Below, in pieces: positions 12,099-20,859 of a stretch of 36,850 nt of DNA. Below the pieces are notes generated by a model, which saw only the letters and a program-made list of their open reading frames with translations, had not been told where the DNA came from and searched no databases. The position numbers and the translations under genes were made by a program. Source of the stretch: Candidatus Stramentimicrobium fermentans (GTDB lineage Bacteria; Atribacterota; Phoenicimicrobiia; Phoenicimicrobiales; Stramentimicrobiaceae); NCBI GenBank assembly GCA_012520575.1, contig JAAYOB010000031.1:1-36850 (forward strand), in the 5' to 3' direction. How positions within the stretch are numbered: the first letter of the stretch is position 1; every line of letters begins with the position of its first letter.

Positions 12099-12112
12099 TT
12101 TGCAACAGACGC

Positions 12113-12202
12113 ATGTTACTGGGGGAGCTATGTGCTGAGAAAAAGCATTTTGCTTTGACCCCTAAACCTGACCTAGGTAATACTAGCGGAGGGAAGTAAC
12201 CA
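12113..12202 (+). ncRNA. TPP riboswitch (THI element)
   Basis: Conserved blocks appear in order: a closing stem GTTACT/AGTAAC, GGGGGAGC, then GTGCTGAGA (CUGAGA box at 12134-12139), GACCCCTAAACCTGACC (ACCUGA box), and GGTAATACTAGCGGAGGGAAG. These are the thiamine-diphosphate-binding segments of the THI element. It lies between a promoter and an intrinsic terminator and in front of thiamine-transport genes. High TPP is expected to favour termination. Confidence 0.95.
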
Positions 12203-12222
12203 TTAGATACGTTAACTTCTGA

Positions 12223-16850: not shown

Positions 16851-16879
16851 TTGACAGACCAGTACAAAGATGTTATATT
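16851..16879 (+). promoter_or_regulatory. near-consensus promoter of the FecB-type ABC operon
   Basis: TTGACA (16851-16856) and TATATT (16874-16879) are exactly 17 bases apart. Transcription would begin near 16886, leaving a leader of about 230 bases before the first start codon. Confidence 0.75.
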
Positions 16880-16902
16880 TCTATTTGAAAAATTAAAAAT
16901 TT

Positions 16903-17032
16903 TTACATTCGAGGTATTACATCTAAAGGAGTAAAACCTGTCTCTGGCTTATATGGCCACCTTGTCCATGGTGTAATATCCTGTTGGCACATCAGGAAAC
17001 TGATGCGCCACCCGTGTTTGGAAAGAATGTAA
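16903..17032 (+). ncRNA. structured leader RNA, candidate metal- or cofactor-sensing riboswitch
   Basis: The bases fold into a closed multi-helix domain. P1 is TTACATTC (16903-16910) with GAATGTAA (17025-17032), 8 perfect pairs. P2 is GGTATTACA (16913-16921) with TGTAATATCC (16972-16981), 9 pairs and one bulge. Inside P2 a small hairpin TGGC/GCCA can form (about 16945-16959). P3 is GGC-A-CATCAG (16986-16995), a GAAA tetraloop, then CTGATG-C-GCC (17000-17009). An unpaired ACCCGTGTTTGGAAA joins P3 to P1. An intrinsic terminator follows at once. I do not recognise the class with confidence; a Moco/Tuco-like element is one idea, from the tetraloop and the gene context. THI, cobalamin, SAM and lysine boxes were not found. 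Confidence 0.6.
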
Positions 17033-17058
17033 TGAAAAATAAAGTAATTACAAAAACC

Positions 17059-17088
17059 AAAGTAGCGGGAACGCTACTTTTTTATTTT
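17059..17088 (+). terminator. intrinsic terminator in the leader of the FecB-type operon
   Basis: AAAGTAGCG (17059-17067), loop GGAA, CGCTACTTT (17072-17080), then TTTATTTT. It sits after a promoter and a folded leader and only about 30 bases before the first start codon, so it must be bypassed for expression. This is the usual layout of riboswitch attenuation. Confidence 0.88.
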
Positions 17089-17116
17089 AAAAACAAAATA
17101 AGGAGGATTTTTTGTT

Positions 17117-18145
17117 GTGTTACGGAAAGACAAGTTTTTCTATCTATTTACCATTGTGTTGGTAACATTACTGGCGGTCAGTCTAACTTCTATCGGTGCG
17201 GAAGACAAAATTGTCTTGGTTGATGTTATCGGTCGAGAAATAGTTCTGGATAAACCGGCAACTAAAGTAGTAGGGACCCATAACCCCACTTTAAATGCAG
17301 CGGTAGTTTTAGGCGGTGGGGAAAAATATATTGTCGGTTTCGGTAATAAAGAGATGTCCAGACCGCTTTATGAAGCAGTAATGGATGATTATGATGCAAT
17401 TGTTCAGATTGGCAAGGGCGGTAATATTAATTTTGAAACAGTATTGGCGACCGGTGCAGATTTAGCCATAATTCCAGAGCGGTTTAAAGACCAGGTGGTT
17501 CAGTTTGAAGAAGTCGGTCTCAATGTAATAGTAGCACTACCCAATGAAGAGAGTTTCGATACTATCAGACAGAGCTTGACATTATTAGGAAAAGCATTAG
17601 GTGCTTCCGATAGGGCCGAGATGATTATTGGCTTTATGGATGACCGCATTGAAAATGCCAGAAAAATTACCTCTCAAGCTACCGATAAACAGACCGTTCT
17701 CTTTCTGGGCGGCAGTTCAGCACTTTCCGTTGCACCGGATGCCATGATTCAAACACATCTAATTGAAATAGCCGGTGGCCTGAATGCTGTTTCCGGAGTA
17801 AGCGGAACTGGGAATTTTGTGGAGGTTAATATTGAGCAGATTATTTCCTGGAATCCGGATGTTATTTGGTATCCGGCCTATGCCAGATATACTGCCGAAG
17901 ATTTGCTCAATGACCCTGCCTGGAGCAATATCAATGCTGTTAAGAATAAAAAAGTCTTTGCCTTCCCTTCACAGGTAGAGCCCTGGGATCAGCCCACCGC
18001 CGCACTGGCGCTCGGCATTGCTTGGGCTACCCATAATCTACACCCCGATCTTTATACTCTGGATGAGATTATGGCTGATGTGGACAATTATTACAATATG
18101 GTTTATGGTAAAACTTTTACCGGAGAACAATTAGGAATAAAATAG
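17117..18145 (+). CDS. ABC substrate-binding protein, FecB/BtuF/MolA class
   Basis: This extracytoplasmic binding protein has 342 residues. A signal peptide spans about 1-28 (KFFYLFTIVLVTLLAVSLTS), followed by the class opening VLVDVIGREIVLDKPATKVV. The helical-backbone fold is supported by INFETVLATGADLAIIP (about 111-127) and by NIEQIISWNPDVIWYP. The C-terminal part FAFPSQVEPWDQPTAALALG then WATHNLHPDLYTLDEIM resembles members that carry ferric chelates, cobalamin or molybdate/tungstate. The start is GTG 17117, 10 bases after AGGAGG (17101-17106). It heads an operon with a permease, an ATPase and a DUF364 protein, behind a terminator-bearing leader. The substrate is not determined by sequence. 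Confidence 0.87.
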   Translation: MLRKDKFFYLFTIVLVTLLAVSLTSIGAEDKIVLVDVIGREIVLDKPATKVVGTHNPTLNAAVVLGGGEKYIVGFGNKEMSRPLYEAVMDDYDAIVQIGKGGNINFETVLATGADLAIIPERFKDQVVQFEEVGLNVIVALPNEESFDTIRQSLTLLGKALGASDRAEMIIGFMDDRIENARKITSQATDKQTVLFLGGSSALSVAPDAMIQTHLIEIAGGLNAVSGVSGTGNFVEVNIEQIISWNPDVIWYPAYARYTAEDLLNDPAWSNINAVKNKKVFAFPSQVEPWDQPTAALALGIAWATHNLHPDLYTLDEIMADVDNYYNMVYGKTFTGEQLGIK

Positions 18146-18172: not shown

Positions 18173-19183
18173 ATGGATAACACTAAATTCAGACGGCTAT
18201 TTACCATATTGATTGTTCTTTTAATCATTACCTTTTTTATTTCACTGAGCATAGGAAGATACAGCAACGACCCTCTTGATGTTTTGAATACACTATTTTC
18301 CCGGGCAGGATGGAAAGAGGGTTCTAATCCGATAATGGACAATATAGTCTTCTATGTGCGGATGCCAAGAATAATTGTATCTATGCTGGTAGGTGCTATG
18401 CTATCTCTGTCAGGAGCAGTATATCAGGGGGTTTTTAAAAACCCCCTGATATCACCTGACCTGTTAGGTGTATCCTCGGGTGCCTCAGTAGGTGCGGCCT
18501 TGGCCATCATGTTAGGCGCCTCTCTTGCCCAAAGACAAATCACCGCTTTTTTAGGTGGATTACTTGCCGTTTCTATAACTGCTTTTATTCCCAAGCTATT
18601 CAAAAATCGTAATAATATGATGCTAGTACTTTCCGGGATTATTGTAAGTGGTTTTTTCTGTTCATTGTTATCAATTATGAAATTTGTGGCAGAAGAGCAG
18701 ACCGAACTGGCTTCTATTGTTTTTTGGCAGATGGGCAGTATGGCAAAAGTTCTGGGCAAAGAGATTGTAGCCATTACCCCGGTCTTCATTATCTGTACTA
18801 CCGTACTCCTATTACTTTCCTGGCGTATTAATATACTGTCATTTGGTGATTTAGAGGCAAAGTCATTAGGAATGAATATTACTCAGATTCGGGGAATTAT
18901 TATTGTCTGCGCCAGTCTATTGACCGCCAGTTCAGTTTCTATTAGTGGTACTATCGGATGGATAGGGCTGGTTATACCTCATTTAGGGCGTTTAGCTATT
19001 GGTACTGATAACACCAAAGTAGTACCCATTACAGTAGTTATGGGAGCACTATTTATGTTGGTTATTGATACTTTAGCCCGTACTGTCTCTACAGCGGAAA
19101 TCCCATTGTCGATTTTAACCGGTTTTGTGGGGGCACCTCTTTTTGCCTATTTACTCTATAAGCAAAAAACTCTGGTAGAATAA
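18173..19183 (+). CDS. FecCD-family ABC transporter permease
   Basis: This 336-residue inner-membrane permease of the BtuC/FecCD class probably has ten spans. Family landmarks are VRMPRIIVSMLVGAMLSLSG, YQGVFKNPLISPDLLGVSSG, the helix pair ending GGLLAVSITAFIPKL, LEAKSLGMNITQIRG, and GTIGWIGLVIPHLGRLAIGT with the ATPase-coupling helix. ATG 18173 follows AAGGA. The sequence encoding YQGVFKNPLI contains a perfect 32-bp palindrome at 18421-18452. The gene lies 28 bases after the binding-protein gene and 43 bases before the ATPase gene. Confidence 0.93.
   Translation: MDNTKFRRLFTILIVLLIITFFISLSIGRYSNDPLDVLNTLFSRAGWKEGSNPIMDNIVFYVRMPRIIVSMLVGAMLSLSGAVYQGVFKNPLISPDLLGVSSGASVGAALAIMLGASLAQRQITAFLGGLLAVSITAFIPKLFKNRNNMMLVLSGIIVSGFFCSLLSIMKFVAEEQTELASIVFWQMGSMAKVLGKEIVAITPVFIICTTVLLLLSWRINILSFGDLEAKSLGMNITQIRGIIIVCASLLTASSVSISGTIGWIGLVIPHLGRLAIGTDNTKVVPITVVMGALFMLVIDTLARTVSTAEIPLSILTGFVGAPLFAYLLYKQKTLVE
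18421..18452. repeat. perfect 32-bp palindrome inside the permease gene
   Basis: The left arm ATATCAGGGGGTTTTT (18421-18436) is followed with no spacer by its exact reverse complement (18437-18452). In RNA it would form a stem of about 14 bp, with five consecutive G-C pairs and a TTAA loop. It lies in the conserved FecCD motif, so the protein is intact (YQGVFKNPLIS). The flanking bases do not extend the symmetry. Confidence 0.95.
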
Positions 19184-19226
19184 TTTATTAGTTGAATATG
19201 AGCCTAATTATACATTGGTGATTTCA

Positions 19227-20030
19227 ATGTTAAGAAAAACACAAACATCCTTACAGCTAAAGATTGAACAGGTTAGTTTTTCTTATAATGGTTCTGAGGA
19301 GATATTGAAGAGTATTAGTTTTACGGTCAACTCAGGTCAAATTATCTGTATTTTAGGACCTAATGGAATAGGAAAAACTACTTTACTCACCTGTTTGGCA
19401 AAGTTAAACTCACCCACCAGTGGAAAGATATTATTGAATGGCGAGGATATGAGTTTAATAGAACATCGTACTATCGCCCGCAATGTAGGTTATGTGCCCC
19501 AAACAATTGCTCCCTCTTTTGATTACAGTGTTTTAGAATATGTGGTTACCGGGCTCGCTCCCTGGCTGGGTATCTTTGAAAAACCAAAAGAAGAACACTA
19601 TCAGCAAGCATTACAGGCCTTACAGAAAATTGGGATAGAACATATTAAAGATAAACCCTATACTCGAATCAGTGCCGGAGAACTGCAAATGGTTTCCATT
19701 GCCCGTGTTCTTGCTCAAAAGGTGCAATTTGTACTGATGGACGAACCAACCTCCCACCTTGATTTTGGTAACCAACTAAAGGTTTTAAATATTATTAAAG
19801 AGATGGCGAAAGAAGGTTATGGGATAGTGCTGACCACCCATAATCCTGATCAGGTTCTTTTGTTGGAAGGCAAAGTAGCCGTATTTGACCGAGAACGGCA
19901 ATTTCATTTTGGAAACTGGTCTGATATCCTTAATGATAAACTCTTAAAATCAATTTACGGTGTAACCTTAAAAATTTGCGAAGTCGAACAGGTCTCGAGA
20001 AAGGTGTGCATTGCACCCCGTATTGAGTGA
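19227..20030 (+). CDS. ABC transporter ATP-binding protein, FecE/BtuD class
   Basis: This cytoplasmic ATPase for the FecCD permease carries Walker A GPNGIGKTT, Q-loop GYVPQTIAPSF, Walker B FVLMDEPTSHLDFGNQ and switch TTHNPDQ. The signature reads ISAGELQMVSIARVLAQ, with SAGE instead of the usual SGGE; this variant occurs in related metal-uptake ATPases but is worth noting. I chose ATG 19227 (MLRKTQTSLQLKIEQVSFSY); TTG 19215 is in frame but no better supported, and the ribosome site of either is weak. At 267 residues it has the family length. It is the third gene of the operon and is followed 52 bases later by the DUF364 gene. Confidence 0.9.
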   Translation: MLRKTQTSLQLKIEQVSFSYNGSEEILKSISFTVNSGQIICILGPNGIGKTTLLTCLAKLNSPTSGKILLNGEDMSLIEHRTIARNVGYVPQTIAPSFDYSVLEYVVTGLAPWLGIFEKPKEEHYQQALQALQKIGIEHIKDKPYTRISAGELQMVSIARVLAQKVQFVLMDEPTSHLDFGNQLKVLNIIKEMAKEGYGIVLTTHNPDQVLLLEGKVAVFDRERQFHFGNWSDILNDKLLKSIYGVTLKICEVEQVSRKVCIAPRIE

Positions 20031-20082: not shown

Positions 20083-20859
20083 ATGCTAATTGACTCCATC
20101 ATAAAAGAAGCCCGACCATATTTAGCGGAGAGAAAAATAAAAGACGCTGTTTTAGGATTATCTTTAATCGGTATCGAATTAGATAATAATGATATCGGCT
20201 TGGCCTATACGTTACGAAATTACCTTCCGCCCGGCTGTTCGGTCTTCGGCTTTGCTCAGGATATAATCGGTGCCAATGCTTATAAGGTGGCACAATTAGC
20301 AAGTTCCGGTACTGATGATGCTCAAAGAGGAGTAGGGGTAGCTGTTCTTACTGCCGGTACCCGGCAGCTTGCTTTGCATAATGATGATAATAGCGAAGCT
20401 CTTTTTGGTTTAGATGTAAAGCCTACAGATGTGGTAGGGATGATTGGCTGGATTCCACCCGTTGCGGCAAAATTTGCTGAGAAGGCAAAGCAGCTATACG
20501 TATTTGACGAAGGGATCTCTCTTAGTAATGAAAAAGGACCCGCCTATATGAAACCCATGGAAGAGCAAGATAAACTTTTACCTCAGTGCGACTTAGCTGT
20601 TATCACCGGAAGTACTTTTATCAACCATAGCATTGATCATCTTTTAGAGATCTCAGTAAAAGTCCGGGAAATAGTATTAGTCGGATCGTCAACTCCCATG
20701 TATCCACGAGCTTTTGCCCAAACAAAGGTATCGGTGTTAGCCGGCTCCTGGTGGGATAGTCATCAAAAAGAATTTCTCTTTAAAAAAATATCTCTATCCG
20801 GCGGAATTCATCATGTGCAGCCAGCCATGCTCAAAATGTCCGTCCGTATTAAACACTAA
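20083..20859 (+). CDS. DUF364 protein, putative heavy-metal chelation domain
   Basis: This 258-residue cytosolic protein has a DUF4213-like N-terminal part (about 1-100) and a Rossmann-like DUF364 part (about 115-250). Landmarks include VGMIGWIPPVAAKFAEKAKQ (nucleotide-fold start), LYVFDEGI, CDLAVITGSTFINHSIDHLL and VLVGSSTPMYPRAFAQ. Known structures of the family suggest an enolase-N/Rossmann arrangement and a role in heavy-metal handling, but no activity is established. ATG 20083 follows AAAGGAAG. Its place as last gene of an FecB/FecCD operon fits handling of the imported metal or metal chelate in the cytosol; this is an inference from context. Confidence 0.85.
   Translation: MLIDSIIKEARPYLAERKIKDAVLGLSLIGIELDNNDIGLAYTLRNYLPPGCSVFGFAQDIIGANAYKVAQLASSGTDDAQRGVGVAVLTAGTRQLALHNDDNSEALFGLDVKPTDVVGMIGWIPPVAAKFAEKAKQLYVFDEGISLSNEKGPAYMKPMEEQDKLLPQCDLAVITGSTFINHSIDHLLEISVKVREIVLVGSSTPMYPRAFAQTKVSVLAGSWWDSHQKEFLFKKISLSGGIHHVQPAMLKMSVRIKH

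What the first reader, a model, noticed from the sequence alone, without database searches (positions are those of the whole stretch)
16851..17116. Candidate riboswitch of unassigned class before an FecB/FecCD/DUF364 operon
A TTGACA-N17-TATATT promoter is followed by a closed domain (8-bp P1, 9-bp P2 with one bulge, P3 capped by a GAAA tetraloop, conserved-looking ACCCGTGTTTGGAAA joiner) and then a perfect intrinsic terminator 30 bases before the first start codon. This is the layout of a ligand-controlled attenuator. Because the operon handles a metal or metal chelate, the ligand could be molybdenum/tungsten cofactor, a metal ion or a corrinoid; the AOR fossil shows that pterin enzymes once occurred here. 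It may be a diverged Moco/Tuco element or a new class.
Basis: partly seen in the sequence, partly recalled or inferred. Interest (0 to 1): 0.7.

Follow-up and report, generated by a model that had tools for sequence, protein, structure and literature searches.

The report
Tungsten-cofactor riboswitch controlling metal importer
This RNA leader belongs to the known molybdenum/tungsten-cofactor riboswitch family, in the form thought to sense the tungsten cofactor, and it is predicted to shut off the genes of a likely tungstate/molybdate importer when that cofactor is plentiful: a known kind of switch in front of a gene set it had not clearly been tied to.

Summary
The structure is real but not unassigned. 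Window 16895-17044 (+) matches Rfam RF01055 (Moco/Tuco riboswitch) at 62.4 bits (cut-off 36; E 7.5e-13). It lacks stem P3, the form Regulski 2008 links by correlation to the tungsten cofactor. The genome has seven RF01055 matches, five over the cut-off; others lie before wtpABC, a moeA/moaA/moaC operon, a second FecBCD-type importer and a broken AOR. In the class, AOR, tup and one wtp type lack P3 (20 of 20); a diverged wtp operon with a molybdoenzyme-like gene carries it. The FecB-FecCD-ABC-DUF364 operon is closest to H. influenzae MolABC by permease and ATPase. RF01055 precedes it in two sister genomes and four Clostridia/Bacillota relatives, not in seven other complete operons. Folding the growing transcript gives an OFF switch: P5 (17011-17021) is captured by the terminator region (17057-17069) unless the aptamer holds it; 23 of 26 P3-less leaders with a terminator show such capture, two leaders of this very operon do not. 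Ligand, metal and DUF364's role are inferred. New member of a known kind, with a useful link between DUF364 and tungsten.

The parts
16851..16879 (+). promoter, TTGACA-17-TATATT
   Evidence: start of transcription near 16887 is inferred
16895..17044 (+). Moco/Tuco riboswitch aptamer, RF01055, without P3; enlarged P2 loop (33 nt against 4 in the consensus at the omitted stretch)
   Evidence: 62.4 bits, cut-off 36
16903..16910 (+). P1 5' strand
16913..16924 (+). P2 5' strand
16969..16980 (+). P2 3' strand; only CTGT (16981-16984) separates it from the P4 arm, so there is no P3
16986..17009 (+). P4 with GAAA tetraloop 16996-16999
17011..17021 (+). P5 (CCCGTGTTTGG); also the 5' half of the predicted antiterminator
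17025..17032 (+). P1 3' strand; 17028-17033 can pair instead with 17047-17052 inside the antiterminator
17057..17069 (+). 3' half of the predicted antiterminator (CCAAAGTAGCGGG), overlapping the terminator's 5' arm and loop
17059..17083 (+). intrinsic terminator
17100..17106 (+). Shine-Dalgarno-like AAGGAGG
   Evidence: position; function inferred
17117..18145 (+). substrate-binding protein, Peripla_BP_2 (FecB-like)
18173..19183 (+). FecCD permease; closest solved structure HI1471 (MolB)
19215..20030 (+). ABC ATPase; closest solved structure HI1470 (MolC)
20083..20859 (+). DUF4213/DUF364 protein

Best explanation
Window 16895-17044 is a P3-less member of the Moco/Tuco riboswitch family (RF01055) that likely binds the tungsten cofactor and is predicted to stop transcription ahead of a FecB-FecCD-ABC-DUF364 operon when that cofactor is abundant. 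Shown by computation: family membership, missing P3, terminator, and two mutually exclusive predicted folds. Predicted: without ligand, P5 (17011-17021) pairs with 17057-17069, part of the P1 3' strand is drawn into an inner hairpin (17028-17033 with 17047-17052), the terminator cannot form and the operon is read. With ligand, P1 and P5 are held in the aptamer, the terminator at 17059-17083 forms, and transcription stops 33 nt before the first start codon. Inferred: the operon is a MolABC-like (type II) importer of tungstate, or of tungstate and molybdate, and DUF364 acts on the imported metal or a chelator of it.
For: RF01055 62.4 bits, E 7.5e-13 over the window. P2-P4 gap of 4 nt, no P3. Nascent-RNA folds: aptamer at 3' end 17058, antiterminator at 17068-17072 (-49.4 kcal/mol at 17072), aptamer plus terminator at 17083. 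Over P3-less leaders with a terminator (the C36 AOR leader set apart), P5 is captured (6 nt or more) in 23 of 26; in the window 1 of 40 shuffled tails does as well. P5-hairpin complementarity beats shuffles at p<=0.05 in 16 of 26, window p 0.036. Regulon in the own genome: wtpABC, moeA/moaA/moaC, AOR. P3-less leaders stand before AOR 8/8, the close wtp type 6/6 and tupABC 6/6 among 46 class leaders. Same leader and gene order in G020, and in G022 up to the contig end before DUF364, and in L097, L104, L112, L114. Closest solved permease and ATPase are MolB and MolC (2nq2).
Against: No ligand binding is testable here. The P3 rule is a correlation: Regulski 2008 reports that deleting P3 from the E. 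coli RNA only destroyed control, and names exceptions, among them two P3-less RNAs before sulphite-oxidase-like genes in S. wolfei (PMC2408646, passages). Here a diverged WtpB/WtpA operon is P3-bearing although its WtpA passes NCBIfam's tungstate cut-off. Seven of 12 complete FecB-FecCD-ABC-DUF364 operons have no RF01055. Capture of P5 is not seen in G018:C57, L104 (3 nt) and L114, the last two being leaders of this very operon; in G017:C36 and G018:C46 it persists in the full-hairpin fold; in G014:C6 15 of 40 shuffled tails do as well. Against 27 unrelated hairpins the window's duplex ranks only p 0.107. MolB is the best solved match for all three FecCD types of this group, and the binding protein's best match is 4hn9, with MolA (3psa) third, so the substrate is not fixed by homology.
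Confidence: 0.75

Rival explanations
1. Same RNA family, but the sensed ligand is the molybdenum cofactor (or both cofactors), and the operon brings in molybdate as well.
For: The P3 rule rests on correlation, with exceptions. The E. coli member senses Moco (PMC2408646, passages). H. influenzae MolA binds both molybdate and tungstate (PMC4031551, passages). The genome has one molybdopterin oxidoreductase frame that could take Mo or W.
Against: In this class P3-bearing leaders stand before the operons with molybdenum labels (Oxidored_molyb, 5 of 5 in view, Pfam run on one of them and the rest by tblastn; MOT1, 1 of 1), P3-less ones before AOR, tup and the close wtp type, 20 of 20. No modA above its cut-off in this genome.
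Confidence: 0.2
2. The aptamer controls the operon by another platform: the terminator is constitutive or only an end signal, or the switch is of the ON type.
For: The P1 3' strand (17025-17032) does not overlap the terminator stem (17059-17080). The AOR leader on C36 does have that overlap (L012), so an ON-type layout exists here. Capture fails in L104 and L114.
Against: The predicted antiterminator is the minimum-energy fold exactly while the terminator's 3' arm is not yet made, and such capture recurs in 23 of 26 leaders. Repression on cofactor excess fits an uptake operon (inference).
Confidence: 0.12
3. A new riboswitch class, unrelated to Moco/Tuco.
Against: RF01055 is over its cut-off by 26 bits with model positions 1-135 matched, P3 deleted; the next best matches (E 0.3 to 0.4) are below their cut-offs.
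Confidence: 0.01

Closest known systems
Moco RNA motif / Moco-Tuco riboswitch, Rfam RF01055 (Regulski et al. 2008, PMC2408646)
   Same: Family score, P1, P2, P4 with GAAA loop, P5, conserved CGA and GGAAAG letters; absence of P3 as in 58 of 176 RNAs of that paper; terminator-type platforms were noted there for some members.
   Different: P2 loop is enlarged; the controlled operon is FecBCD-type with DUF364, not named in the passages read (no 'fecB' or 'COG2014' in the main text); 'antiterminator' does not occur in the main text. Its supplement, which lists the 176 RNAs, was not seen.
H. influenzae MolBC-A, type II molybdate/tungstate importer (HI1470-1472)
   Same: Permease (2nq2_A, E 4.7e-79) and ATPase (2nq2_C, E 2.6e-41) are the closest solved structures; MolA (3psa) is a significant match of the binding protein (E 6.9e-20).
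   Different: Best match of the binding protein is 4hn9, not MolA; a DUF364 gene follows; in H. influenzae the factor that represses molB was reported as unknown (PMC4031551, passages).
DUF364 proteins 3l5o (Dhaf4260) and 3npg
   Same: Pfam PF04016 and PF13938 both over cut-off; Miller 2010 (PMC2954201) predicted a part in rare-metal uptake from gene neighbours, tungstate and molybdate included.
   Different: Distant in sequence (3npg E 1.1e-6, 3l5o E 7.4e-6); the riboswitch adds regulatory evidence not mentioned in the parts of that paper read (1-3 of 4).

Membership tests
Moco/Tuco riboswitch RF01055 | covariance-model score over the curated cut-off | tested here: met
   62.4 against 36 bits
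Moco/Tuco riboswitch RF01055 | P1, P2, P4 (GNAA loop), P5 with conserved CGA and GGAAAG core | tested here: met
Moco/Tuco riboswitch RF01055 | helices kept by covariation in homologous leaders | tested here: met
   8 leaders: P4 82 of 88 cells paired, 10 of 11 positions vary; P1 inner four positions 31 of 32, outer four only 20 of 32 (anchored by script, no shuffled control)
Moco/Tuco riboswitch RF01055 | gene context of Mo/W cofactor making, uptake or use | tested here: met
   own genome and class relatives
Moco/Tuco riboswitch RF01055 | cofactor-dependent gene control | not testable with these tools
   needs experiments
P3-less (Tuco) subtype | no stem between P2 and P4 | tested here: met
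   gap CTGT
P3-less (Tuco) subtype | selective response to the tungsten cofactor | not testable with these tools
   only gene-context correlation
MolABC-type importer | FecCD permease and ATPase closest to MolB/MolC | tested here: met
   a weak test, as only 8 distinct FecCD sequences matched in the PDB set
MolABC-type importer | MolA-like binding protein | tested here: inconclusive
   3psa third best, E 6.9e-20
MolABC-type importer | transport of molybdate/tungstate | not testable with these tools
   needs experiments
Cobalamin, NiCo or other metal riboswitch | Rfam match | tested here: not met
   none among the matches at E up to 10

The most novel reading that the evidence does not exclude
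In this bacterial class the P3 stem is the ligand selector of the Moco/Tuco riboswitch: single genomes carry both forms, P3-less RNAs run a tungsten regulon (AOR, wtp, tup, Mol-type importer with DUF364) and P3-bearing RNAs a molybdenum regulon, and the P3-less RNAs share an antiterminator made from the ligand-core stem P5. DUF364 is then a tungsten-handling enzyme.
Probability: 0.42. Interest if true: 0.65.

Novelty: new member of a known kind. Interest (0 to 1): 0.42.

Why it matters
The leader ties an importer family usually annotated as iron/siderophore/B12, and a protein family of unknown function (DUF364), to the tungsten cofactor by regulation and not only by gene neighbours. Genomes that hold both P3 forms make the open question of 2008, whether P3 separates Moco from Tuco sensing, directly testable. 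The predicted P5 antiterminator gives exact positions to mutate.

Tried and rejected
New class or corrinoid/NiCo element: rejected by Rfam. 'AOR fossil' as evidence for pterin enzymes: not needed, the genome has three full-length open AOR frames; the remnant itself is only E 0.013. P1 3' strand as the antiterminator strand: rejected for the window, no overlap with the terminator stem; P5 is the strand. MAFFT alignment of eight leaders shifted the tail by one column in four rows, so pairs were counted from anchored segments in a script. A covariance model of my own was planned (alignment A3) and not built. The first test of P5 complementarity used only the 5' arm and loop (p<=0.05 in 9 of 26); after seeing that wtp leaders use loop plus 3' arm I widened the region to the whole hairpin (16 of 26), a choice made after looking. 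The background set for that test is small (27 hairpins). P3 was called by script as a hairpin of 4 bp or more between P2 and P4; in several leaders the script set the P2 end too early (gaps of 9-12 nt that include P2 letters), and the 30.4-bit hydrogenase leader of the own genome (L008 7455-7596) could not be placed well. Leader in plasmid records: no match. RF01055 in L096: none, also in the permissive scan. DUF364 genes of the sister family f2 (five strong matches) are not on contigs with an RF01055 match. Of the 57 class matches (52 over the cut-off), 46 were read with flanks and 10 of the other 11 in short loci; L030 (G005) did not fit the search pattern and was not classified.

Full report
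What was checked. The leader folds far better than shuffles (z -4.83, 0 of 200). Promoter and terminator are in place.

What it is. A scan of the whole window against Rfam gives two matches over the curated cut-offs: a TPP riboswitch at 12111-12211 and RF01055, the Molybdenum/Tungsten (Moco RNA) riboswitch, at 16895-17044, 62.4 bits against 36, E 7.5e-13. The alignment covers model positions 1-135 and deletes the P3 stem; the loop of P2 is longer than the consensus. Only CTGT lies between P2 and P4. Regulski et al. 2008 (PMC2408646; [quoted passage not shown] The paper names exceptions (Moorella, Pelobacter, two S. wolfei RNAs before sulphite-oxidase-like genes) and says that deleting P3 from the E. 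coli RNA disrupted control altogether, so the rule is a correlation.

The regulon. The genome (1.58 Mb, 50 contigs) has seven RF01055 matches, five over the cut-off. By Pfam and NCBIfam the genes behind them are: wtpABC; the window operon; a second importer (unknown 157 aa, FecCD, ABC, Peripla_BP_2, 247 aa); moeA, moeA-PBP, moaA, moaC-MOSC and a MoCF_biosynth protein; a WtpA-like fusion followed by Peripla_BP_2, where the contig ends (36.0 bits, at the cut-off); a broken AOR (34.7 bits, below cut-off); an FeFe hydrogenase (30.4 bits, below cut-off). The genome encodes three full-length open AOR frames besides partial ones, one molybdopterin oxidoreductase frame and no modA over the cut-off.

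Class survey. In 24 genomes of the class (the own one included) 23 have RF01055, 57 matches in all, 52 over the cut-off. In 46 of these read with flanks, a P3 hairpin is absent in 32 and present in 14. P3-less: AOR 8 of 8, the close wtp type 6 of 6 (wtpC in view in four), tupABC 6 of 6, moeA-led operons 5 of 5, FecB-FecCD-ABC(-DUF364) 3 of 3, the second FecCD type 3 of 3 (one a 30-bit match), and the weak hydrogenase match of the own genome. P3-bearing: six operons led by a diverged WtpB, five of which show an Oxidored_molyb-type gene and WtpA in view (Pfam run on one, the others by tblastn at 73-86% identity); three operons led by the WtpA-like fusion (two of them below the RF01055 cut-off), one long enough to show a MOT1 molybdate transporter gene; five hydrogenase leaders. 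Ten of the remaining eleven matches, read in short loci, are of P3-less length, nine before tupA. Against this neat split: the WtpA of the P3-bearing operon passes NCBIfam's tungstate cut-off (298.8 against 242.75 bits), and the genomes are related, so these are not independent counts.

The operon in other genomes. A scan of species genomes with an alignment of 32 DUF364 proteins gave 32 loci; 8 hold an RF01055 match. Of 12 complete FecB-FecCD-ABC-DUF364 operons with the leader in view, 5 have RF01055 before fecB (L095, which is evidently G020's own contig by its length and match; L097; L104; L112; L114) and 7 do not (L096 and six Anaerolineaceae/Chloroflexi). G022 has leader, fecB, fecCD and ABC before its contig ends. 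L109 and L110, with the same coordinates and perhaps one lineage, have the RNA before a shorter FecCD/ABC/DUF364 set. L125 has a match on the other strand downstream. The window's genome is in the same genus as G020 by the tool's kinship; G020's contig is titled Atribacterota bacterium STE_193, so the window is likely from an Atribacterota relative.

Covariation. In eight leaders of DUF364 operons, P4 has 82 of 88 cells paired and 10 of 11 positions vary, up to five pair types; P1 has 31 of 32 in the inner four positions and only 20 of 32 in the outer four; P2 has 7 to 9 of 9 paired (no shuffled control was run).

How it works. Folding the growing transcript from 16887: with its 3' end at 17058 the aptamer (P1, P2, P4, P5) is the best fold; at 17068 and 17072 the best fold loses P1 and P5, and at 17072 pairs 17011-17015 and 17017-17021 with 17065-17069 and 17057-17061 around an inner hairpin of 17028-17033 with 17047-17052; at 17083 the aptamer returns together with the terminator. 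These folds are exclusive, so a ligand that holds P1/P5 would favour the terminator: an OFF switch, as expected for uptake. Terminators were found by script in 29 of 51 leaders (46 of the class, 5 of other DUF364 operons). Of these, 26 are P3-less leaders other than the C36 AOR one; capture of P5 by the terminator region (6 or more of 11 nt in the best fold of the nascent RNA) is seen in 23 of 26, not in G018:C57, L104 (3 nt) and L114. In the 23, shuffled tails reach the observed value in 0 to 6 of 40, but in 15 of 40 for G014:C6; in G017:C36 and G018:C46 capture persists in the full-hairpin fold. It is absent in 2 of 2 P3-bearing leaders with a terminator and in the C36 AOR leader, where the P1 3' strand itself is the terminator's 5' arm. 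Duplex energies beat 500 shuffles at p<=0.05 in 16 of 26 and in none of those 3; against 27 unrelated hairpins the window ranks p 0.107. The leaders are related and the region was widened once after looking. No held paper found by the searches was seen to describe this antiterminator or to tie DUF364/FecBCD to Moco RNA; most of those papers were seen only as listings, and subscription papers and supplements were not searched.

What the operon does. The permease's best solved match is HI1471/MolB (269.5 bits, next 178.7), the ATPase's is HI1470/MolC, and MolA is the third match of the binding protein. MolBC-A is a type II importer whose MolA binds molybdate and tungstate (PMC4031551, passages). 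MolB is also best for the other two FecCD types, so this says 'Mol-like' and no more. DUF364: Miller et al. 2010 (PMC2954201, parts 1-3 of 4 read) solved Dhaf4260 and proposed, from the cleft and gene neighbours, a part in rare-metal uptake with a flavin, pterin or siderophore-like compound. Control by a cofactor riboswitch agrees with that proposal; which step DUF364 performs remains unknown.

Verdict. A P3-less RF01055 riboswitch: near certain for the family, likely for tungsten, well supported by folding for the OFF mechanism, untested by experiment.

Noticed in passing
L063, L064, L065, L068, L069, L071 (P3-bearing leaders before the diverged WtpB): In 6 of 6 the P1 3' strand holds GGAG and is followed by the ATG of a 10-13 codon leader ORF whose stop codon lies in the 5' arm of a long hairpin ending in a T-run: perhaps a leader-ORF-coupled attenuator under the aptamer.
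   Followed up: partly
L062, L072, L076, L077, L080 and L008 7455-7596 (-): RF01055 177-310 nt before an FeFe hydrogenase match in six genomes, with an ECF transporter S-component gene following in view in four; P3-bearing in five of six, weak and hard to place in the own genome.
   Followed up: partly
L012 10942-11070 (+): AOR gene broken by a stop, behind a sub-threshold RF01055 match whose P1 3' strand is the 5' arm of a terminator, i.e. an ON-type layout. Described only.
   Followed up: partly
   Followed up: yes
window 12111-12211: TPP riboswitch (65.4 bits) before a BPD_transp_1 / NMT1-THI5 / ABC ATPase gene set, an ordinary thiamine-precursor uptake layout.
   Followed up: no
L009 6243-10632 (-) and L010 5872-8601 (+): A second FecBCD-type importer (P3-less leader) and the start of a third (P3-bearing leader, WtpA-like fusion and binding protein, then contig end) in the same genome; in relative L094 the latter continues with FecCD, ABC and a MOT1 gene.
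   Followed up: partly
L042-L046, L057-L061: Five genomes of the sister family carry two neighbouring DUF364-family matches with no RF01055 match on the contig.
   Followed up: no
L125 9389-9508 (-): RF01055 match on the opposite strand, about 2 kb downstream of a DUF364 gene.
   Followed up: no
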